A stretch of DNA of 64,000 nt from Ariolimax columbianus (taxonomy: Eukaryota > Mollusca > Gastropoda > Stylommatophora > Arionidae). The stretch lies in assembly GCA_036924085.1 (NCBI GenBank), contig JAVGWX010000002.1, positions 154,351,571-154,415,570 on the forward strand, given 5' to 3'. The notes under the pieces are model-generated. The model was not told where the DNA came from and did no database searches. It worked only from the letters and a program-made list of their open reading frames with translations. The translations under genes were made by a program, and so were the position numbers. This document shows, one piece after another, positions 6,330 through 60,690 of this stretch (the first letter of the stretch is position 1; each line of letters opens with the position of its first letter).

Positions 6330-7006
6330 GTCTTTATACTGGTTTAGAAGACTGCAGAGTCTGTCTACAACCAGTTTCATTTACATTACCTTGCTCTAAA
6401 AGCTATGCGCATCCAATGTATTCTTAAATGCACTAATTGTCCCTGCCTTCACTACATCTCGTGGCAATGCATTCCAAGCATTCACCACTCTCTGACTAAA
6501 AAAATATTTCCTAATATCTAATCTGGACCTCTCTTTAGTCAGCTTGTAGCTATGCTCTCATATTATTGTGGGTGGCTATATTTTTTAAAAACTTGTTACA
6601 GTCTAATTTATTAATTCCTCTGATCATCTTATAAACCTGTATTATGTCACCTCGAATTCTTCTCTACTCTAGACACTGTAGGCCGGTTTTTCTGAGTCTT
6701 TCCTCATAACTGTAATTCTGGAATCCAACTATCAGCTTTGTCGCTCTTTTTTGAATTCTTTCCAGCATGTTTATATCCCCTCTGTGAAAAGGACTCCACA
6801 CCTGTATACAATACTCGAATCTATGTCTAACTAATGCTTTATACAGTTTGACTATCACTTCCTTGTTCCTATGTTTGATATTTCTTTGTATCATACCTAA
6901 CATTGCATTTGCCTTTTTCACTGCTACCTTAACTTGTTCCCTTACCTTACCTGTATGATTTATTGTAACATATAGGTCCCTTTCCTTTTCTATCTTTCTA
7001 ACATTA
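6330..7006 (-). pseudogene. CR1-type LINE 3' part
   Basis: The minus strand encodes the C-terminal third of a CR1-clade ORF2: EKERDLYVTI, VKKANAMLGMIQRNIKHRNK, VIVKLYKALVRHRFEYCIQV, LERIQKRATKLI, SYEERLRKTGLQCLE, then with shifts RYFFSQRVVNAWNALPRDVV and a terminal NTLDAHSF. This order (Y..LVR...EYC.QVW, IQ+RATK, YE.RL+.LGL..L, FSQRV+..WN.LP) is diagnostic for CR1. The short 3' segment to about 6330 matches 27515-27597. Confidence 0.85.
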
Positions 7007-8205
7007 TTCGAAGAGAGACTAAATAGAAATGATACTAAAGGAGCATACAAGGTTGTCAAAGAACTGGTAACACCAAGACAAGGCAGGGACCTTATGATCC
7101 TTGATAAAAGCGGCAAGTGCCTTATTGAGGAAAATGACGTACTGGCAAGATGGACAGAATACTGTTCCGAGCTATATAACTATGAAGGGCGAAACGAACC
7201 TGAGAAAACAATCCCCCCCCCCTCCCCCCCCCCCCCAACACCATCAAATATAGAGGATAACCAACTGATAACGAAGGAAGAGGTAATTGCAGCGGTGAAG
7301 ACATTGAGAAGAGGGAAGGCGGCCGGCGTGGACAATATGCCAGCAGAGCTCTTACAAACAGGTGGAGAGGTAGTGGTGGAAGGCCTGACACACATCTGCA
7401 ATAAAATATGGGCGACAGGAAACTGGCCGGACATTTGGACGAAATCAATAGTTATACCGTTACATAAGTCTGGAAACCTAAAGCTGTGCCAAAATTACAG
7501 AACAATAAGCCTCATCAGCCACCCTAGCAAGGTCGTGCTTAGATTAATCCTCGACCGATTGAAACCCCAAGCAGAGAACATTATTGCTGGGGAGCAAGCA
7601 GGGTTCAGACAAGGAAGAAGCACTACAGAACAGATATTTAATTTAAGGCTGCTAAGCGAGAAATATCTAGAACAGCAGCAAACACTGTATCATGTGTTTG
7701 TGGATTTTAAAAAGGCGTTTGATAGGGTATGGCATAATGCGCTTTGGGCAACCATGAGAATGTATAATATCAACGGAAATATTATAACGGTCGTTGAACA
7801 CCTGTATGACAAGGCGTCTAGCGCAGCTCTTGTGAATGGGAGGCGAGGGGACTGGTTTCGCAGATCAGTTGGTGTGAGACAGGGGTGTACACTCTCTCCA
7901 ACTCTTTTCAATATATTCCTTGAATGAATTATGAGTGAGGCACTAGGAGGTTACGTTGGTTCTGTCAAGATAGGGGGCCGAACGATTACCAACCTTCATT
8001 TTGCAGATGATATCGACGGGTTGGCGGGTTCAGAAGCAGAACTCCAGGAATGGGTCAGAAGGCTCGATGAAACAGCTCTCGACTATGGTTTGGAGATAAA
8101 CGCTGGAAAGACCAAATTAATGACCAACAACGCCATGGGTTTCAACAGCAGGATAAAAGCTAACGGCCAGAAACTCGAAGTGGTTGACCGTTTTAAATAT
8201 CTTAA
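7007..8205 (+). pseudogene. RTE-type LINE reverse transcriptase, nearly intact but truncated
   Basis: Reverse transcriptase of an RTE-like non-LTR retrotransposon, 5'-truncated. In order: RNDTKGAYKVVKEL, ARWTEYCSELYN, a C/P-rich tract from a poly-C run at 7213-7235, KTLRRGKAAGVDNMPAELL, VIPLHKSGN..CQNYRTISL, GFRQGRSTTEQIF, FVDFKKAFDRVWH, GVRQGCTLSPTLFNIFLE, then a TGA at 7925-7927 where the family has Arg, and FADDIDGLAGSE (the FADD catalytic box). The frame is continuous through the stop. Homology ends abruptly after DRFKYL at about 8205, where an A11 run and purine-rich sequence begin. Confidence 0.9.
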
Positions 8206-8400
8206 AAAAAAAAAAGAGGAAGTAAAGAAGGGTGAAAAGGAAGAGGAAGAAGAAATTGAAAGAGAAAAAAGGAAGAAGAATTACATTCTCCGTCGTTCAT
8301 TGACGGGAAAACGTCATGCTGTGGTACAAGAGCAAACAACTCTTGGAAGTCACAACCATGTAATTGTTGGAGTTCCAGCCCTTGTGCAGACCAGAAGCCA
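8206..8400. other. Purine-rich tract and unassigned sequence
   Basis: A-tract followed by GA-rich sequence coding only for Lys/Glu runs, which ends the LINE homology. The junction could be an insertion or a slippage expansion. Confidence 0.55.
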
Positions 8401-9380
8401 TTGACGTTGAGTCGTGTTCCAGCTAATAATTAGTTAGGCTGTTTAATTGGCATAGGACCAGAATAAAATCAAACTCTTGGTCACACATCCTTGACTTTAA
8501 TTTTGTGCTGTTGTTAAACGGTCATTTCCATTTGTTGTAATAAGGTATTACTTAGTTACTCCTCTTCTACTCTGGTGTGTAGATGTTTGTCAGAAAGAAC
8601 GCCACATTATTATATCTGTTGTCTTTCACTTAGCCTGGTTTCAGTTCTCGGTCTCTTATAAACGCTTATACTGTTATTCTAGTGGATTTTAGGTTGTCCT
8701 GGAAGTCTGGACCCTTGGCTCTTTGCTTCCCCTGACTGCCGTGGTAGCTAATCTTCGTTTCATCTACAGACATGGCCAAACCACCGGAGTCGAGACTGAT
8801 CCTATAAAGTCTACAAGAGCTGGGTTTTCAGATCGTTCTGGATTGTTTGATTGCGGACCATGTCTTCTTGGGCCAGCCATCTTAGACATCTCATTCTATA
8901 GGCTTGTAACTGGCGTTTATGGGTAGTAGTCATTGCCTGTGAATCATTTCCGTAAAGTCTTAAGTGGTACCCAGGTGAAGCGCTACCAAGAAATCATACC
9001 TGTGTCGCATTTACTGAGTAATCCTCTACTTAGGGTATGGAGGAGTCTGCCAATTACTGCTTTCCGAGTAGTCAACTCTTCTTTGATGTCTCATCTGTTC
9101 TATTACAGCTCCAAAGCATATGAACTGCCTAACCTGTTCTATGGGCTGCTTACTCAGAATAATATGATAGATCTTCTCTTCTCTAGACCACTGCGGTTTT
9201 CGTGTTTCAGCTTCTACTTTGCAGATTTTAAGATTGTGCTGGGTGTACATCTGATTTGGTAACCAAGGCTCTGTCATCAGCAATCAGACGTCCCATTGGT
9301 ACGATTTGTTCAGTCGGCCAATCCTTTCACTACCAAATCACGGTAAACAGTACTTGCCTTACGCAAAATTGAAGTCCCTG
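8401..9380. other. No gene recognised; possible old retroelement
   Basis: Only short frames. The minus strand near 9300-9230 reads PMGRLIADDRALVTKSDV, which hints at a retrotransposon ORF but is too short to assign. Confidence 0.4.
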
Positions 9381-14044: not shown

Positions 14045-15035
14045 AGTATCCCTTGTATCTACCACGTGCATTGATCACTGCTTGACATCTGTGCCTCATG
14101 AACCGAATGCAGCGCCTCAGTAAATCGTGTAGAATGTTCTGCCACTCCTGCGTGACTTAATGACGTAGTTGGCCATAACAGTCTGTGGTGGATGCTATCA
14201 TTGAAGAAGACATTTCAGCTCGTCCCAGACATGCTCAATTGGTGACAGGTCATGGAAAATGGCTGGCCAGAGTCAGATTTCAATGTTTCTGGCTTGGACT
14301 TAATCATGCATGGCGCTGGCAACAGGAGGACGGGCATTGTTTTGCTGAAGCAAAATGGCTGTTGCATGGTTCGGAACAAAAATGCCGACGTGGTTCCTCG
14401 TGATCGCATCATGGTATCGCAAGCAGGTAGCAGCACCGTTTAAGACTACAAGGCCTGTCCAATAATTGGTACAGATCCCTCCCCAGACCATAATCCCTCC
14501 ACCACAACTACGAGTGCGCTCTTGAATGCAGTTGTTGGCGTAGCGCTCTTTATGTCGACGATACACTCTCTGACGAGCATCGTCTCTTGAGAGGTTGCTC
14601 CTGCGCTCGTCAGTAAACAGTAGTCTGTCATACATAGCGTTCCAACAGCGCAGATGTTGTTTGGCTCATGCTAGTCTTGCGGCACGATGTCGTGGCTGCA
14701 GAGTTAAATGAATAGCATGGCGTCTTGCACGTAGACCTTGCTCCCGCAAGCGGTTTCTGACAGTAGCTAATCCTATTCTTCTCAGTCCGGAGATGGTGCC
14801 AGCAGTGACTGTTGCTGAAATATGTTTCGCAGAGTCAGTCTCGAGCTTGCTGTCTGGTCACTAATTGAGAAAGTCTCCCGTTGGCATGTCAGTTCCAGTC
14901 CTCCAGTAGCGGTTTAGCCAAAGCCTAACAGTCTGTATTGACACATCAAATTGTCTTGCTGTTACAGACACAGCCATTCCTCCTTTCAACACACCAACAG
15001 CTCGTAACATCCTATTTAACGTCATGCGTCACATC
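14045..15035 (-). pseudogene. Tc1-like DDE transposase, inactivated
   Basis: Minus-strand Tc1/mariner superfamily transposase. N-terminal helix-turn-helix near 15025-14890: LRAVGVLKGGMAVSVTARQF, DVSIQTV, NRYWRTG. Catalytic core from 14635: LLFTDE (first Asp), RQRVYRRHKERYA, GGGIMVWGGI, then LLQQNNARPP, where the second catalytic Asp (family: QHDNARPH) is Asn at about 14339-14341. A stop follows, then LSPIEHVWDEL near 14230 with the third acidic residue. D to N(D) spacing is about 90 residues, as expected for Tc1-like enzymes. Several stops and the lost Asp make it dead. Terminal inverted repeats were not identified. Confidence 0.85.
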
Positions 15036-29154: not shown

Positions 29155-32152
29155 AAAGCCACCGGCCCCTCTTCACATCTTGTTCCACCGGCCCCTCTTC
29201 ACATCTTGTTCCACTGGCCCCTCTTCACACCTTGTTCCACCGGCCCTTCTTCACATCTTGTTCCACCGGCCCCTCTTCACATCTTGTTCCACCGGCCCCT
29301 CTTCACATCTTGTTCCACCGGCCCCTCTTCACATCTTGTTCCACCGGCCCTTCTTCACATCTTGTTCCACTGGCCCCTCTTCACACCTTGTTCCCCCGAC
29401 TTCACTTCACATCTTGTTCCACCGGCCCTTCTTCACATCTTGTTCCACCGGCCCCTCTTCACATCTTGTTCCACCGGCCCCTCTTCACATCTTGTTCCAC
29501 CGGCCCCTCTTCACATCTTGTTCCCCCGGCTTTTCTTCACACCTTGTTCCCCCGGCCCTTCTTCACATCTTGTTCCACCGGCCCCTCTTCACATCTTGTT
29601 CCACCGGCCCCTCTTCACATCTTGTTCCACCGGCCCCTCTTCACATCTTGTTCCACCGGCCCTTCTTCACATCTTGTTCCACCGGCCCCTCTTCACATCT
29701 TGTTCCACCGGCCCCTCTTCACACCTTGTTCCCCCGGCCCTTCTTCACATCTTGTTCCACCGGCCCCTCTTCACATCTTGTTCCACCGGCCCCTCTTCAC
29801 ATCTTGTTCCACCGGCCCCTCTTCACATCTTGTTCCACCGGCCCTTCTTCACATCTTGTTCCACTGGCCCCTCTTCACACCTTGTTCCCCCGACTTCACT
29901 TCACATCTTGTTCCACCGGCCCCTCTTCACATCTTGTTCCCCCGGCTTTTCTTCACACCTTGTTCCCCCGACTTCACTTCACATCTTGTTCCACCGGCCC
30001 TTCTTCACACCTTGTTCCACCGGCCCTTCTTCACACCTTGTTCCACCGGCCCCTCTTCACACCTTGTTCCACCGGCCCTTCTTCACACCTTGTTCCACCG
30101 GCCCCTCTTCACACCTTGTTCCACCGGCCCTTCTTCACACCTTGTTCCACCGGCCCTTCTTCACACCTTGTTCCACCGGCCCCTCTTCACATCTTGTTCC
30201 ACCGGCCCTTCTTCACACCTTGTTCCACCGGCCCCTCTTCACATCTTGTTCCCCCGGCTTTTCTTCACACCTTGTTCCACCGGCCCTTCTTCACACCTTG
30301 TTCCACCAGCCCCTCTTCACACCTTGTTCCACCGGCTTTTCTTCACACCTTGTTCCACCGGCCCCTCTTCACATCTTGTTCCACCGGCCCTTCTTCACAC
30401 CTTGTTCCACCGGCCCCTCTTCACATCTTGTTCCCCCGGCTTTTCTTCACACCTTGTTCCACCGGCCCTTCTTCACACCTTGTTCCACCGGCCCCTCTTC
30501 ACACCTTGTTCCACCGGCCCTTCTTCACACCTTGTTCCACCGGCCCCTCTTCACACCTTGTTCCCCCGGCTTTTCTTCACACCTTGTTCCACCGGCTTTT
30601 CTTCACATCTTGTTCCCCCGGCTTTTCTTCACACCTTGTTCCACCGGCTTTTCTTCACACCTTGTTCCACCGGCCCTTCTTCACATCTTGTTCCCCCGGC
30701 TTTTCTTCACACCTTGTTCCACCGGCCCCTCTTCACATCTTGTTCCCCCGGCTTTTCTTCACACCTTGTTCCACCGGCCCTTCTTCACACCTTGTTCCAC
30801 CGGCCCCTCTTCACACCTTGTTCCACCGGCTTTTCTTCACACCTTGTTCCACCGGCCCCTCTTCACATCTTGTTCCACCGGCCCTTCTTCACATCTTGTT
30901 CCACTGGCCCCTCTTCACACCTTGTTCCCCCGACTTCACTTCACATCTTGTTCCACCGGCCCCTCTTCACATCTTGTTCCCCCGGCTTTTCTTCACACCT
31001 TGTTCCCCCGACTTCACTTCACATCTTGTTCCACCGGCCCTTCTTCACACCTTGTTCCACCGGCCCTTCTTCACACCTTGTTCCACCGGCCCCTCTTCAC
31101 ACCTTGTTCCACCGGCCCTTCTTCACACCTTGTTCCACCGGCCCCTCTTCACACCTTGTTCCACCGGCCCTTCTTCACACCTTGTTCCACCGGCCCTTCT
31201 TCACACCTTGTTCCACCGGCCCCTCTTCACATCTTGTTCCACCGGCCCTTCTTCACACCTTGTTCCACCGGCCCCTCTTCACATCTTGTTCCCCCGGCTT
31301 TTCTTCACACCTTGTTCCACCGGCCCTTCTTCACACCTTGTTCCACCGGCCCCTCTTCACACCTTGTTCCACCGGCTTTTCTTCACACCTTGTTCCACCG
31401 GCCCCTCTTCACATCTTGTTCCACCGGCCCTTCTTCACACCTTGTTCCACCGGCCCCTCTTCACATCTTGTTCCCCCGGCTTTTCTTCACACCTTGTTCC
31501 ACCGGCCCTTCTTCACACCTTGTTCCACCGGCCCCTCTTCACACCTTGTTCCACCGGCCCTTCTTCACACCTTGTTCCACCGGCCCCTCTTCACACCTTG
31601 TTCCCCCGGCTTTTCTTCACACCTTGTTCCACCGGCTTTTCTTCACACCTTGTTCCACCGGCCCCTCTTCACATCTTGTTCCCCCGGCCCTTCTTCACAC
31701 CTTGTTCCACCGGCCCCTCTTCACATCTTGTTCCCCCGGCTTTTCTTCACACCTTGTTCCACCGGCCCTTCTTCACACCTTGTTCCACCGGCCCCTCTTC
31801 ACACCTTGTTCCACCGGCTTTTCTTCACACCTTGTTCCACCGGCCCCTCTTCACACCTTGTTCCACCGGCTTTTCTTCACACCTTGTTCCACCGGCCCCT
31901 CTTCACACCTTGTTCCACCGGCCCTTCTTCACACCTTGTTCCACCGGCCCCTCTTCACACCTTGTTCCACCGGCTTTTCTTCACACCTTGTTCCACCGGC
32001 CCCTCTTCACATCTTGTTCCCCCGGCTTTTCTTCACACCTTGTTCCACCGGCCCCTCTTCACACCTTGTTCCCCCGGCCCCTCTTCACACCTTGTTCCAC
32101 CGGCCCTTCTTCACACCTTGTTCCACCGGCCCCTCTTCACATCTTGTTCCCC
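29155..32152 (+). repeat. 26-bp minisatellite, about 115 units (3 kb)
   Basis: Units TTCCACCGGCCCCTCTTCAC, ATCTTG with few variant types (CCCCTC/CCCTTC/CTTTTC, ATCTTG/ACCTTG, CACCG/CCCCG). As 26 leaves remainder 2 on division by 3, all three forward frames read the same 26-residue cycle and stay open for more than 1000 codons. A block near 29830-30607 recurs almost exactly 1040 bp (40 units) later. Confidence 0.97.
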
Positions 32153-37728: not shown

Positions 37729-38104
37729 GGAACGCCTGTGAAACTCTTAAACTGAACAAAGAAATCTGTGAGATTTATGATGTCCTGCTTTGTTAAGATG
37801 GGAACATTTGAGGATGTCCAATTACTACTGTGCAAATGGAGACAAACTGTAGCACATATTATTTTATCATGAAGGGTGTCGCTTGGACACAGACGATACA
37901 CATGGAGTCACAAAAGAATAGACAAGGCGAGGATAAAGGAAAATAACAAGACATCCCAGAATTGTAAACATCAAAGCAGACACATCAGCACACACCAAAC
38001 CCACTAACCCTGACTTGCCAACAGCTTTGGTAGTGCTGATGACTAGAATGACGTCTGTTAAAAAAGTATCCAACCGTGGGTCGGAAAAATAAAATGACAC
38101 AACT
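37729..38104. other. No gene recognised
   Basis: No coding or repeat signal beyond short frames. Confidence 0.5.
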
Positions 38105-38424
38105 GGAGGTTTGAAACCCTAATCCCCTTCAAAGTACTCTCCTTGGAACTCTATAAACTTCTTCCAGTAGTCCCGTCATTGTTAGAAACATTTCAGGAAG
38201 GCCTCTTTGGAAACGGAGTACAGCTGATTCGTCTCATGTCTTCTCGTGACTCAAATCGGGTCCCTTTCAACGAAATTTTCAGCTTAGGGAACAGCCAAAC
38301 ATGACAAGGAGCCATGTCTGGAGAATAGAGAGCCTGGCAAACTAGTGGAATGTTGGGCTGGGCAAAGAAAGTCTGACTCAGATGCGAAGAATTAACGGGC
38401 GCTTTGTCATGATGGAACTGCCAA
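38105..38424 (-). pseudogene. Mariner transposase C-terminal part
   Basis: Minus-strand reading GTWQFHHDKAPVNSSHLSQT, FFAQPNIPLVCQALYSPDMA, PCHVWLFPKLKISLKGTRFE, SREDMRR. HHD holds the second catalytic Asp. In YSPDMAPCHVWLFPKLK the D of SPD is the family's DLAP motif, whereas the third catalytic Asp normally sits in PC(D)xxLFP and is His here. It continues the protein encoded at 40850-40619. Confidence 0.86.
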
Positions 38425-40618
38425 GTTCCTGTTGTCATGATGGAGCTGCCAAGTTCCTGTCGTCATGATGGAGCTGCCAAGTTACTGTCGTCATGATGGA
38501 TCTGCCAAGTTCCTGTTGTCATGATGGAGCTGCCAAGTTCCTGTTGTCATGATGGAGCTGCCATGTTCCTGTCGTCATGATGGAGCTGCCATGTTCCTGT
38601 CGTCATGATGGAGCTGCCAAGTTCCTGTTGTCCACAGATCCGGTCGTCATGATGGAGCTGCCAAGTTCCCGTTGTCTACAGATCCGGTCGTCATGATGGA
38701 GCTGCCAAGTTCCCGTTGTCCACAGATCCGGTCGTCATGATGGAGCTGCCAAATTCCCGTTGTCATGATGGAACTGCCAAGTTCCTGTTGTCATGATGGA
38801 GCTGCCTAGTTCCTGTCGTCATGATGGAGCTGCCAAGTTCCTGTCGTCATGATGGAGCTGCCAAGTTCATGTTGTCATGATGGAGCTGCCAAGTTCCTGT
38901 TGTCATGATGGAGCTGCCAAGTTCCTGTTGTCATGATGGAGCTGCCTAGTTCCTGTCGTCATGATGGAGCTGCCAAGTTCCTGTCGTCATGATGGAGCTG
39001 CCAAGTTCATGTTGTCATGATGGAGCTGCCAAGTTCATGTTGTCATGATGGAGCTGCCATGTTCCTGTTGTCATGATGGAGCTGCCATGTTCCTGTTGTC
39101 ATGATGCAGCTGCCATGTTCCTGTTGTCATGATGGAGCTGCCAAGTTCCTGTTGTCCACAGATCCGGTCGTCATGATGGAGCTGCCAAGTTCCCGTTGTC
39201 CACAGATCCTGTCGTCATGATGGAGCTGCCAAGTTCCTGTTGTCATGATGGAGCTGCCTAGTTCCTGTCGTCATGATGGAGCTGCCAAGTTCCTGTCGTC
39301 ATGATGGAGCTGCCAAGTTCATGTTGTCATGATGGAGCTGCCATGTTCCTGTTGTCATGATGGAGCTGCCATGTTCCTGTTGTCATGATGCAGCTGCCAT
39401 GTTCCTGTTGTCATGATGGAGCTGCCAAGTTCCTGTTGTCCACAGATCCGGTCGTCATGATGGAGCTGCCAAGTTCCCGTTGTCTACAGATCCGGTCGTC
39501 ATGATGGAGCTGCCAAGTTCCCGTTGTCCACAGATCCGGTCGTCATGATGGAGCTGCCAAATTCCCGTTGTCATGATGGAACTGCCAAGTTCCTGTTGTC
39601 ATGATGGAGCTGCCAAGTTCCTGTTGTCATGATGGAGCTGCCAAGTTCCCGTTGTCCACAGATCCTGTCGTCATGATGAAGCTGCCAAGTTCCTGTTGTC
39701 ATGATGGAGCTGCCAAGTTCCTGTTGTCCACAGATCCGGTCGTCATGATGTAGCTGCCAAGTTCCTGTTGTCATGATGGAGCTGCCTAGTTCCTGTCGTC
39801 ATGATGGAGCTGCCAAGTTGCTGTCGTCACGATGGAGCTGCCAAGTTCCTGTCGTCATGATGGAGCTGCCAAGTTCCTGTCGTCATGATGGAGCTGCCAA
39901 GTTCATGTTGTCATGATGGAGCTGCCATGTTCCTGTTGTCATGATGGAGCTGCCATGTTCCTGTTGTCATGATGCAGCTGCCATGTTCCTGTTGTCTTGA
40001 TGGAGCTGCCAAGTTCCTGTTGTCCACAGATCCGGTCGTCATGATGGAGCTGCCAAGTTCATGTTGTCATGATGGAGCTGCCAAGTTGCTATCGTCATGA
40101 TGTAGATGCCAAGTTCCTGTCGTCATGATGGAGCTGCCAAGTTGCTATCGTCATGATGGAGCTGCCAAGTTCCTGTCGTCATGATGGAGCTGCCAAGTTC
40201 CTGTCGTCATGATGGAGCTGCCAAGTTCCTGTCGTCATGATGGAGCTGCCAATTTCCTGTCGTCATGATGGAGCTGCCAAGTTCCTGTTGTCCTGATGGA
40301 GCTGCCAAGTTCCTGTTGTCCACAGATCCGGTCGTCATGATGTAGCTGCCAAGTTCCTGTTGTCATGATGGAGCTGCCTAGTTCCTGTTGTCATGATGGA
40401 GCTGCCATGTTCCTGTTGTCATGATGCAGCTGCCATGTTCCTGTTGTCATGATGGAGCTGCCAAGTTCCTGTTGTCCACAGATCCGGTCGTCATGATGGA
40501 GCTGCCAAGTTCCTGTCGTCATGATGGAGCTGCCAAGTTCCTGTCGTCATGATGGAGCTGCCAAGTTCCTGTTGTCATGATGGAGCTGCCAAGTTCTTGT
40601 TGTCCACAGATCCTGTCG
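38407..40618 (-). repeat. 28/44-bp minisatellite from mariner catalytic codons (2.2 kb)
   Basis: About 70 units. The short unit, on minus, is ACTTGGCAGCTCCATCATGA, CRACAGGA and spells TWQLHHD plus a frame-shifting remainder. The long unit adds GGATCTGTGGACAACA (DLWTT). Both are consecutive codons of the flanking mariner transposase, which reads RRKRQDLWTTRTWQLHHD on the right edge and GTWQFHHDKAPVN on the left edge. Larger blocks of mixed units recur (about 38760-39000 and 39220-39420). Confidence 0.93.
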
Positions 40619-40850
40619 TTTGCGCCGAACAGCATCATGAAGGCGACGGATGACCTCCAGGTAGTACTCATTGGTCATGTTTTGATATTGTGGTACATTC
40701 TCGTGATACACAACCCCAAGTGAGTCAAATGAAACGGTCAACATAACTTCGACATTGTTGCGCATCTGCCTCGCTTTTTTTTTCAACCCCTGGGATGAAG
40801 AATATCTCCATGACGGCTGCAGTTTGTGTTTCGCTGCTCAATTCTTTCTG
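40619..40850 (-). pseudogene. Mariner transposase central part
   Basis: Minus-strand reading KKKARQMRNNVEVMLTVSFD, SLGVVYHENVPQYQNMTNEY, YLEVIRRLHDAVRRKRQDLW, TT. The Asp of TVSFD is the first catalytic residue of the mariner DD34D triad. The frame leads directly into the minisatellite. Confidence 0.86.
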
Positions 40851-40974
40851 TCATTTTGTGGTGGATGACAATCCGGCGTGACTCAATACACTTAACACTG
40901 AAATGCTGGCTGCCAGCGACTCACGCAATCTGCGGGCGGGAAACAAATCGTGCGTGCGTATGAATGTCCCAAAT

Positions 40975-41358
40975 ACCTGCCTGCCCAAGGACAACTCATA
41001 TGACAGTCCCCAATACCTGCTTGCCCAAGGACAACTCATATGACAGTCCCCAATACCTGCTTGCCCAAGGACAACTCATATGACAGTCCCCAATACCTGC
41101 CTGCCCAAGGACAACTCATATGACAGTCCCCAATACCTGCTTGCCCAAGGACAACTCATATGACAGTCCCCAATACCTGCCTGCCCAAGGACAACTCATA
41201 TGACAGTCCCCAATACCTGCCTGCCCAAGGACAACTCATATGACAGTCCCCAATACCTGCCTGCCCAAGGACAACTCATATGACAGTCCCCAATACCTGC
41301 TTGCCCAAGGACAACTCATATGACAGTCCCCAATACCTGCTTGCCCAAGGACAACACC
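40975..41358 (+). repeat. 40-bp minisatellite, about 9.5 units, homogeneous
   Basis: Units CCTGCYTGCCCAAGGACAAC, TCATATGACAGTCCCCAATA; nearly identical copies. Confidence 0.96.
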
Positions 41359-41509
41359 CATACTTAATATGTTTCCACGGAAAAAAAATCTAATTAAAGT
41401 CAGATACTTTTTGAACATCTTGTAGATTACAGTGAATATAGCAGGAAAGAGGTGTTGTCATGATGTCATTAAGATGTCTCAGAGGTGACCAGATACAGTG
41501 CTGTACGCA

Positions 41510-58510: not shown

Positions 58511-58583
58511 GTCATAAGCTGGCTAAATGGATAAGATGCAGGCCTGTTAGCCAGAAGGTTGTTGAGTTGAATACCCTAGTTTG
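58511..58583 (+). mobile_element. tRNA-Asn-like SINE head
   Basis: GCTGGCTAAATGGATAAGAT (A-box region), CCTGTTAGCC (anticodon GTT), GTTGAGTTGAATACCC (degenerate B box) at tRNA-like spacing. Stems are imperfect. It abuts the I-like LINE. Confidence 0.5.
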
Positions 58584-60690
58584 ATGGAACGTATGATAAA
58601 CATCAGACTGATGTGGCATCTGGAAGAAAAACGGATACTAATTCCACAGCAAGCAGGCTTTAGACAGCACAGATCCACTGAGGACCAGGTCATCCTCATA
58701 GCCCAGGAAATAGAAGATGCCTACCAGGAGCAAAAGCATACAGTAGTGGTTTGGGTGGACCTGGAAAAGGCATTTGACAAAGTCTGGAAAGATGGACTTA
58801 CAGTCAAGCTAAGAAGAAGTGAAGTTTGTGGGAAAATGTACAAGTGGATCAACCACTACCTCAAAAACAGAACGGCCAGAGTCCAAATACAAGGGCAGAT
58901 GAGCAAAAAGGTGACACTTGAGCAGGGAGTACCCCAAGTAGGAGTACTGTCACCCATACTCTTCCTGGTGTATATAAATGACATTATTGAGAATATACCA
59001 AGAAGAGTCCATAGCTCAATGTTTGCAGACGATCTGGCTATGTGGACCTCTGAAAAGAATCTCACCATAGCAAGAAATCGGATGCAGCAGGCCCTAACAT
59101 CGCTGGAAGAGTGGGCGAACTCATGGCTGGTCAAAATAAACGAATACAAAACCACATGTACAATATTCTCGCTATCAATCAAATCCCAAAACACCAAATT
59201 AAGTCTAAACGGCAAATACCTTCAGCCAAACGACAACCCAAACTATCTGGGAGTCAAATTTGATCGGCACATGACATGGAAAAGTCAGATCGAGAAAAAC
59301 CGAATGAGAGCCAGAGAAAGAATGGCAATCATGAGGAAACTTGCTGGAACAAGCTGGGGAGCAGACGAAATCATACTAAAGAAACTGTACACTGGAAGAG
59401 TGAGACCAGTTCTCGAGTATGGCATTGGGGCATGGACAACAGCAGCAAAGGCGAACTTCGATAAAGTTAGCAAACTCCAAAACCAAGCCATGAGAGTTAT
59501 AACAGGAGGCATGAAGTTAACGCCAATTGTAGAACTTGAAAAGATTACAAAACTGCAATCCATGACCGATAGAAGAGACTGCAGAGCCCAGCTGCAGTCA
59601 GAGAAACTCCGAAGACTGACTGACCATATAATGCACCAGAGACTAAACAATTTGGGAAATGGGAAACTAAAGCGGAGAAACTTTGCAGAAAAAGCCAAAG
59701 CAAAGATGCACGAAGATCCCATAAACGCACTAACAACACCAAAGCCCATCACTACTGTACGAAAACCTACCTGGAGGCAGGATATATTTCCAGAGGTGGT
59801 AGAAAATATACCAGGTATTGGAAACAAAAATTGCCAGACTGAAAAAGAAAGGAGAGATACTACCCTAAGCTTTACATCGAAAAACTACCCAAGTATGGAC
59901 TGGACCCATGCATACACCGACGGTTCTGTAACAAACACTACACAGAACGGAGGGGCAGGAGCATTCCTGAACCTACAAAATGGCAGAAAAATAATTCGCT
60001 ACTGGTAAGTACACAAGCAATTTCAGAGCAGAGGCAGAGGCACTGAGGGCGGCAGTGGAAGAAATGGTGACACATAAAGAAAATGAAAGCCATACAGTCC
60101 TGCTTACAGATGTACTGGCCGTAGTCACAGCGCTAAAAAGCCAGAAAAACACTGAGCTTAATGACTTAAGAACAGCACTCTGTCAACTATGCCAGCAGTC
60201 CGCACCAAAAAGGGTAGTGGTACAGTGGGTTCCATCTCACTGCAACATCCAAGGCAACGAGGAGGCAGACAGACTGGCAAAAGAAGGTGCAAAACTACCA
60301 CAACCTGATACTAGTATGACATACGAAGAGTTAAAACGGCTTATTAGAGCCAGATACATGACCAAATGGGAAACCGAACATACTGGCTATACCAAAAACG
60401 ATGCCTATTACCAGTTGAACAGAAAAGAGCAGGTCGTGGTCTTCAGACTTCGCACTGGCCACAATAGACTGAGGTAACACCTATTCAACAAATTGAAGAT
60501 AGGTGGCACCGACGAATGCCCGTGTGGTACCGACAAAATGACCGCTGAGCATCTACTGGAAAACTGCCCGACATCCGAGGATCAGAGAGAGCAGATGTGG
60601 CCATCACCAGTGGCAACACTAGACAGGCTCTATGGCATTTCGAAAAAATAATGGTTACTGCCTGACTGCGTACGATGAAGAAGAAGAAGA
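58581..60690 (+). pseudogene. I/Nimb-like LINE ORF2: reverse transcriptase and RNase H
   Basis: 5'-truncated LINE in intron 2. Reverse transcriptase: QQAGFRQHRSTEDQVILIAQ, VVWVDLEKAFDKVWKDGL, QGVPQVGVLSPILFLVYIND, MFADDLAMW (FADD), YLGVKFDRHMTWKSQIE, AIMRKLAGTSWGADE, LEYGIGAWTTA. RNase H: WTHAYTDGSV (first Asp), frame change near 60000, NFRAEAEAL (Glu), VLLTDVLAVVTAL (Asp) and WVPSHCNIQGNEEADRLAKE (final Asp). C-terminus: KWETEHTGYTKND, TGHNRLR, a TAA at 60475-60477 where the sibling copy has Tyr, then DECPCGTDKMTAEHLLENCP. Ends at (GAA)n. Only one frameshift and one stop were noticed, so this is a fairly young copy. I/Nimb placement rests on the RNase H plus Cys-His tail. Confidence 0.9.

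What the first reader, a model, noticed from the sequence alone, without database searches (positions are those of the whole stretch)
38105..40850. A 2.2-kb minisatellite grown from the catalytic codons of a mariner transposase
Minus-strand transposase codons flank both sides of the array. The right edge ends RRKRQDLWTTRTWQLHHD and the left edge resumes TWQFHHDKAPVN. Both array unit types (28 and 44 bp) are exactly these codons, including the second catalytic Asp. The unexpanded junction sequence contains GACAA twice, 28 bp apart (GACAACAAGAACTTGG...CATCATGACAA), which equals the short unit length. This fits slippage or unequal exchange between tiny direct repeats.
Basis: seen in the sequence. 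Interest (0 to 1): 0.78.

Follow-up and report, generated by a model that had tools for sequence, protein, structure and literature searches.

The report
Minisatellite reborn repeatedly inside one transposon
A dead mariner jumping gene in this genome contains a 2.2-kb stretch of short tandem repeats, and the same repeat has grown at the same spot in dozens of other copies of that jumping gene, apparently because a chance seven-letter repeat sits there twice, 28 letters apart.

Summary
Window 38404-40604 is a tandem array (57 spacings of 28 bp, 13 of 44 bp) inside a decayed mariner copy (about 38050-41425), at the codons for the Asp aligned with Mos1 D249. Other copies in the genome extend the finding. 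28-bp arrays are listed at 52 loci on 18 contigs. In the 19 loci compared end by end, the 3' boundary is the same in 19 and the 5' boundary in 17. Unit numbers run from 2 to about 70. Array copies share no diagnostic flank site, are scattered on a poorly resolved flank tree, and some copies expanded with other units (36, 42 bp). The reciprocal 28-bp deletion matches at 5 places. Best reading: repeated birth in place by slippage or microhomology repair at a chance 7-bp repeat, then growth. A few seeds spread by transposition are not excluded. The mechanism is known (Haber and Louis; Taylor and Breden; TE-derived minisatellites); the number of replicates at one site is what is unusual. The catalytic Asp is incidental.

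The parts
38404..40604 (-). 28/44-bp minisatellite array (about 70 units) at the second-Asp codons of the mariner transposase remnant
   Evidence: TRF; boundaries; 57 spacings of 28 bp and 13 of 44 bp
38050..38403 (-). 3' part of the mariner copy (HHDKAPVN..., decayed, with stops/frameshifts) and its terminal-repeat region
   Evidence: translation; 80-85% identical to the 39 other best-scored genomic copies; end aligned to reference copy
40605..40958 (-). 5'/middle part of the mariner copy (Pfam Transposase_1 match up to ...LHHD), with reference 236-710 missing
40959..41355 (-). Second minisatellite in the same mariner copy: 40-bp unit, 9.9 copies, from reference 68-110
   Evidence: TRF; mapping
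41356..41425 (-). 5' terminal-repeat region of the mariner copy (TGTTCAAAAAGTATC...)
   Evidence: weak alignment to reference copy; terminal repeats of the reference copy

Best explanation
The array is a minisatellite that grew in place inside a dead mariner copy. The family sequence happens to hold GACAACG twice, 28 bp apart. Replication slippage, or microhomology repair of a break, between the two 7-mers duplicated the 28-bp stretch. Once two full units existed, slippage, unequal exchange or gene conversion enlarged the array, and in this copy a further exchange with the 5' flank (family CGACCGGA) gave the 44-bp variant. The same first step happened separately in many other copies of the family, because all started with the same 7-bp pair. 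Shown: position, shared boundaries, ancestral repeat pair, two-unit and longer stages, deletion products. Inferred: that most births were independent, and the enzymology.
For: 40 copies without the array give the ancestral site with GACAACG 28 bp apart. In the family majority (1378 bp) only two direct-repeat pairs of 7 bp or more lie 12-60 bp apart; this is one, and two is no more than 200 shuffles give (mean 3.1), so the pair is a chance feature. 52 distinct 28-bp loci are listed (tally typed from those lists); junction pattern 1017 matches, reversed control 0. Boundaries CTGTG|GACAAC and CATCATGACAAC|GCACC: 3' boundary in 13 of 13 and 5' boundary in 11 of 13 loci (not L064, L067), and both in 6 of 6 loci (L073-L078), allowing single-base changes. 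Graded sizes: 2 units in L073, then 5, 6-7, 7, 9, 12, 12-64, about 70 in the window. No diagnostic flank site: 24 array copies (one of them, L079, with 36-bp units) versus 40 plain copies, 479 sites, no site with excess of 0.4 or more; random sets reach the top value (0.37) in 8%. Array copies share derived bases with each other no more than with plain copies (0.57 versus 0.68 of expectation). In the tree's distances the nearest copy is plain for 11 of 12 array copies (40 of the 51 others are plain). Other registers in the same region: 36 bp in L079, about 42 bp in L080 and L087. Matches to the reciprocal 28-bp deletion at 5 places, control 0. A second pair, AGTCGT 39 bp apart, matches the 39-bp array of L015.
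Against: The flank tree is nearly a star: 9 label changes against 10.9 for shuffled labels (38 of 500 as low), and one clade of array copies is not rejected (AU p 0.26). One flank base (T108G) is in 7 of 19 array copies and 0 of 39 plain ones, so some array copies may share a lineage. Array consensus units differ little from the family unit (12 differences over 19 loci x 28 positions), and units differ within loci (0.094) nearly as much as between loci (0.118), as births soon after insertion, or an inherited seed, would both give. The full 7-bp pair is intact in 0 of 40 copies without the array, so no live precursor was seen. The other 7-bp pair (GCTGAAA, 12 bp apart) and a 9-bp pair 80 bp apart showed no array in the copies scanned. 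Most arrays elsewhere in the element show no clear pair. L080 and L087 may share one origin of their 42-bp unit (similar junctions).
Confidence: 0.77

Rival explanations
1. One or a few births: a source mariner already carrying two or more units was mobilised by transposase in trans, and its descendants each grew or shrank the inherited array.
For: One-clade tree not rejected (AU p 0.26). T108G in 7 of 19 array copies and 0 of 39 plain ones, and 1264 C->T in 6 of 15 against 4 of 40, in an overlapping set of copies. Array consensus units near the family unit. Pairs among L062, L063 and L067 share derived bases at or above expectation (ratios 1.0-1.53).
Against: Of 22 copies picked only by the T108G haplotype, 2 have 28-bp arrays and 1 a 42-bp array, 12 are single-unit, 5 carry deletions and 2 cannot be read (one status). 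No diagnostic site across 24 array copies. Nearest copy plain for 11 of 12 array copies. Other registers nearby.
Confidence: 0.16
2. The 28-bp repeat is a mobile or converting satellite that moved between mariner copies by ectopic gene conversion or extrachromosomal circles.
For: Unit consensus is nearly the same at the 19 loci compared. L064 and L081 lack a recognisable mariner 5' flank and L072 a 3' flank.
Against: Array ends sit at the ancestral repeat pair in 17 (5') and 19 (3') of 19 loci compared; locus-own majority variants mark L028, L059, L063, L064, L071, L074, L076 and the window; the single unit is present in the plain copies.
Confidence: 0.04
3. Assembly or chance artefact.
For: Tandem arrays are prone to misassembly.
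Against: 52 loci, reversed-pattern control 0; short arrays of 2-12 units read through into mariner flank on both sides.
Confidence: 0.02

Closest known systems
Minisatellite birth at short direct repeats (Haber and Louis 1998; Taylor and Breden 2000), known here only through passages in PMC3389668 and PMC6947457
   Same: Unit bounded in the unexpanded sequence by a short direct repeat (5-10 bp in that model, 7 bp here), with a partial terminal repeat left at the array end.
   Different: Here the same birth is seen at many paralogous copies of one transposon, so unexpanded, two-unit, grown and deleted states can be compared side by side.
TE-derived minisatellites in human, e.g. from Alu (Jurka and Gentles 2006, cited there; PMC3389668, passages)
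   Same: Tandem repeats grown from inside a transposable element; among the human arrays with flanking direct repeats 7 bp is given as the main length (PMC3389668, passage).
   Different: A DNA transposon of the mariner group; one site reused in dozens of copies. That paper attributes only 6% of its TE-derived repeats to the two established models (passage).
Mariner Mos1 transposase (PDB 3hos, 4mda, 2f7t)
   Same: Flanks joined across one unit align over 107 residues across the second Asp; Pfam Transposase_1 for the 5' flank.
   Different: Window copy is dead: internal deletion, stops/frameshifts, His where Mos1 has residue 284, and two minisatellites.

Membership tests
Minisatellite born at a short direct repeat | Unexpanded homologues have a short direct repeat at unit-length spacing | tested here: met
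   GACAACG 28 bp apart in the local majority of 40 copies; in single copies the pair has decayed (GACAACG 0, GACAAC 3, GACAA 9 of 40)
Minisatellite born at a short direct repeat | Array equals n units plus the short terminal repeat | tested here: met
   3' boundary in 19 of 19, 5' boundary in 17 of 19 loci compared
Minisatellite born at a short direct repeat | Intermediate (two-unit) state exists | tested here: met
   L073 has exactly two units
Minisatellite born at a short direct repeat | Reciprocal deletion product exists | tested here: met
   5 places within 3 mismatches of 32, reversed control 0; their surroundings were not fetched
Minisatellite born at a short direct repeat | Length polymorphism between individuals | not testable with these tools
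   one assembly only
mariner (Mos1-like transposon) | DDE/D transposase homology over the catalytic region | tested here: met
   Pfam PF01359 E 5.6e-6 for the 5' flank; no Pfam family for the 3' flank alone; Mos1 chains E 1e-6 to 2.5e-5 for the joined piece; the other four sequences listed, lipid-transfer protein CERT at E 0.005-0.006, I take as chance
mariner (Mos1-like transposon) | Terminal inverted repeats | tested here: met
   reference copy L010: ends match at 22 of 27 bp; window ends align to it, the 5' end weakly
mariner (Mos1-like transposon) | TA target-site duplication | not tested
   element ends not placed to the base
mariner (Mos1-like transposon) | Third catalytic Asp in the window copy | tested here: not met
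   His aligned with Mos1 residue 284 (SPDMAPCH; catalytic role recalled): a dead copy
Array-bearing mariner subfamily (single origin) | Array copies share flank markers absent from plain copies | tested here: not met
   no such site in 479; partial marker T108G in 7 of 19, but 17 of 20 readable T108G copies picked genome-wide carry no array

The most novel reading that the evidence does not exclude
A transposon family acts as a replicated natural experiment on minisatellite birth: many copies of one starting sequence were inserted, and a chance 7-bp repeat 28 bp apart made one site a reproducible birthplace, used independently in at least several tens of copies, with 1-, 2-, few- and many-unit stages and the reciprocal deletion all present in one genome.
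Probability: 0.7. Interest if true: 0.62.

Novelty: new member of a known kind. Interest (0 to 1): 0.5.

Why it matters
How minisatellites start is mostly inferred from single loci whose unexpanded ancestor is gone (own knowledge). Here the ancestor is known from many sister copies, so birth rate can be related to repeat length, spacing, copy age and chromosomal place, and duplications can be weighed against deletions at the same microhomology. The genome also looks minisatellite-dense (about a quarter of this window; 9% of 39 pieces around mariner copies), so the process may be general here.

Tried and rejected
Hairpin as cause: the single-unit site is not unusually stable as a strand (58% of 80-base windows of the element are as stable or more); rejected. 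Selection or function of the catalytic codons: units are not multiples of 3 and the copy is dead; rejected. Array-bearing subfamily: tested by tree, shared derived bases, diagnostic sites and T108G sampling; not supported as a single origin, kept as a rival. A flank query with L062 joined around one unit gave full-span matches at all 39 other places scored, but split matches of array copies would rank lower, so I do not use it as a frequency. Remainder test on 22 other window arrays: 17 of 22 lengths lie within -4..+10 of a whole number of units (9.0 expected if uniform), suggestive only. Frequency: of the 100 places listed for the 3'-boundary pattern (561 matches, control 0), 5 lie at known array loci, most others unchecked. 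Of 39 copies chosen by similarity to the window's 3' flank, 1 (L028) has the 28-bp array and at least 5 carry other arrays. Rfam (gathering scores) and tRNA scans of the window: nothing. Species: not identified. Literature searches showed, in the titles and abstract starts listed, no paper on repeated minisatellite birth at one site of a mariner family; the library lacks most subscription papers, and I saw passages of three papers only.

Full report
What is there. On the minus strand of the window a mariner remnant runs from about 41425 to about 38050. It is interrupted at the codons of the second catalytic Asp by a tandem array, 38404-40604, of about 70 units: 57 spacings of 28 bp and 13 of 44 bp. 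A second array, 40-bp units at 40959-41355, comes from the 5' part of the same element (reference 68-110). The element lacks reference 236-710. The flanks joined across one unit align to Mos1 chains (best E 1e-6); the Asp of HHD falls on Mos1 residue 249, and a His on residue 284 (the catalytic roles are recalled). The 5' flank alone matches Pfam Transposase_1 and the 3' flank alone no Pfam family. The copy is dead.

The ancestor. The window lies in a 2.29-Gb genome. I fetched the 39 other best-scored copies by similarity to the window's 3' flank and hold two further copies found by the 5' flank (L011, L012). Of these 41, one (L028) has the array. In the other 40 the local majority is CTGTG-GACAACGGGAACTTGGCAGCTCCATCAT-GACAACG-CACC: GACAACG twice, start to start 28 bp; some of the 40 carry small indels there, and in two (L021, L042) the 5' side is replaced. 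Both 7-mers hold a CpG; its state in the 40 is CG 12, TG 9, CA 8, other 11 for the first and CG 14, CA 11, TG 8, other 7 for the second, as CpG decay would give (inference). Of the 40, none keeps the whole 7-bp pair, 3 keep GACAAC and 9 keep GACAA at exactly 28 bp. Over the 1378-bp majority only two pairs of 7 bp or more lie 12-60 bp apart, this one and GCTGAAA 12 bp apart; one longer pair (9 bp) lies 80 bp apart. Shuffled sequence gives 3.1 pairs on average.

Many loci. Searching with the array itself, a junction pattern (1017 matches, reversed control 0) and a two-unit query, plus one locus met, gave 52 distinct loci with 28-bp units on 18 contigs (tally, typed from the lists). Each search lists only part of its matches, so 52 is a lower bound; 27 of the 52 are known by match coordinates only. 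I read DNA of 25: 19 have recognisable mariner on both sides (L078 weakly on the 5' side), 3 (L082, L084, L094) have one side outside the fetched piece, and 3 have one side that is not recognisable mariner (L064 and L081 on the 5' side, L072 on the 3' side). Unit numbers: 2 (L073), 5 (L075), 6-7 (L076), 7 (L074), 9 (L077), 12 (L078), 12 to 64, about 70 in the window. L073 is the predicted first stage: CTGTG, two identical units, the terminal repeat with one base changed, and the 3' flank. Neighbouring registers also exist: 36-bp units in L079 and mixed into L070, 42-43-bp in L080 and L087, 22-bp units mixed into L061, L066, L067, L082 and L084.

One birth or many. Tree of 12 array and 40 plain copies on 550 flank columns: nearly a star, 9 label changes against 10.9 for shuffled labels (38 of 500 as low); one clade not rejected, p 0.26; the nearest copy is plain for 11 of the 12. 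L064 was left out for lack of flank. Derived bases shared, relative to expectation: array-array 0.57, array-plain 0.68, plain-plain 1.05; all of 2000 random 12-sets shared more than the array set. The plain set was chosen by similarity to the window copy, which raises its own sharing. Diagnostic sites: with 24 array copies (L079, of 36-bp units, among them) and 40 plain copies over 479 sites, the largest excess is 0.37 (T108G, 7 of 19 versus 0 of 39), reached by 8% of random sets. I followed T108G: 22 exact-haplotype copies genome-wide; 2 have 28-bp arrays, 1 a 42-bp array, 12 are single-unit, 5 have deletions, 2 cannot be read (one status taken). So the haplotype is not an array lineage, although arrays may be commoner in it (2 of 20) than among relatives of the window copy (1 of 39). 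I conclude that most births were separate; a few may be inherited.

Age and growth. Across 19 loci, array consensus units differ from the family unit at 12 of 532 positions, whereas flanks of 12 array copies differ from the flank majority by 11-36%. Units differ by 0.094 within and 0.118 between loci. The simplest reading is birth soon after insertion, while the 7-bp pair was intact, followed by slow turnover; an inherited seed would look similar.

Mechanism. Slippage, microhomology-mediated repair and unequal exchange all predict duplication and deletion between the two 7-mers. The deletion product matches at 5 places, against 561 matches to the intact 3' boundary with the same number of mismatches (its bases are partly better conserved, so the ratio is rough); 5 of the 100 places listed there are at known array loci. 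The tools cannot tell the three pathways apart. The 44-bp units of the window fit a second exchange between array units (CGACAGGA) and the 5' flank (family CGACCGGA). Elsewhere in the family a 39-bp array (L015) starts and ends at another predicted pair, AGTCGT 39 bp apart; for the other arrays in the element (L014, the 48-bp array of L015, L022, L039, L041, L067, L069, L070, the window's 40-bp array) I found no clean pair of 6 bp or more in the majority, though L070 has GTCAAA near both ends.

Known background. The birth model with 5-10 bp direct repeats is Haber and Louis 1998, and that with an incomplete terminal unit Taylor and Breden 2000; Alu-derived cases are Jurka and Gentles 2006. I know these here through passages of PMC3389668, PMC6947457 and PMC9659126, not from the papers themselves. 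This locus is therefore a new member of a known kind, notable for replication at one site.

Noticed in passing
window, whole: 23 minisatellites (period 19-60 bp) make up about 25% of the window; 39 pieces around mariner copies elsewhere hold about 9% in arrays, so the genome looks minisatellite-dense.
   Followed up: partly
window 40959-41355: The 40-bp array just right of the finding belongs to the same mariner copy (reference 68-110).
   Followed up: yes
L041:2309-2790, L015:1-631 and 723-1120, L022, L014, L039, L067, L069, L070: Other copies of the same mariner family carry different tandem arrays (31-91 bp units) at other places of the element.
   Followed up: partly
G000 C8:70448833-70453905: A roughly 5-kb stretch of matches to the same 28-bp array, the longest among the listed loci by coordinates (not fetched).
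   Followed up: no
window 29159-32150: 3-kb array of a 26-bp unit with very few stops: all three forward frames are open for over 1000 codons; probably a consequence of the repeat, not a gene.
   Followed up: no
window 58566-60477, 6959-8404 and 14300-14665 (minus): ORFs that by eye look like non-LTR reverse transcriptase/RNase H pieces and a Tc1-like transposase (no family search run).
   Followed up: no
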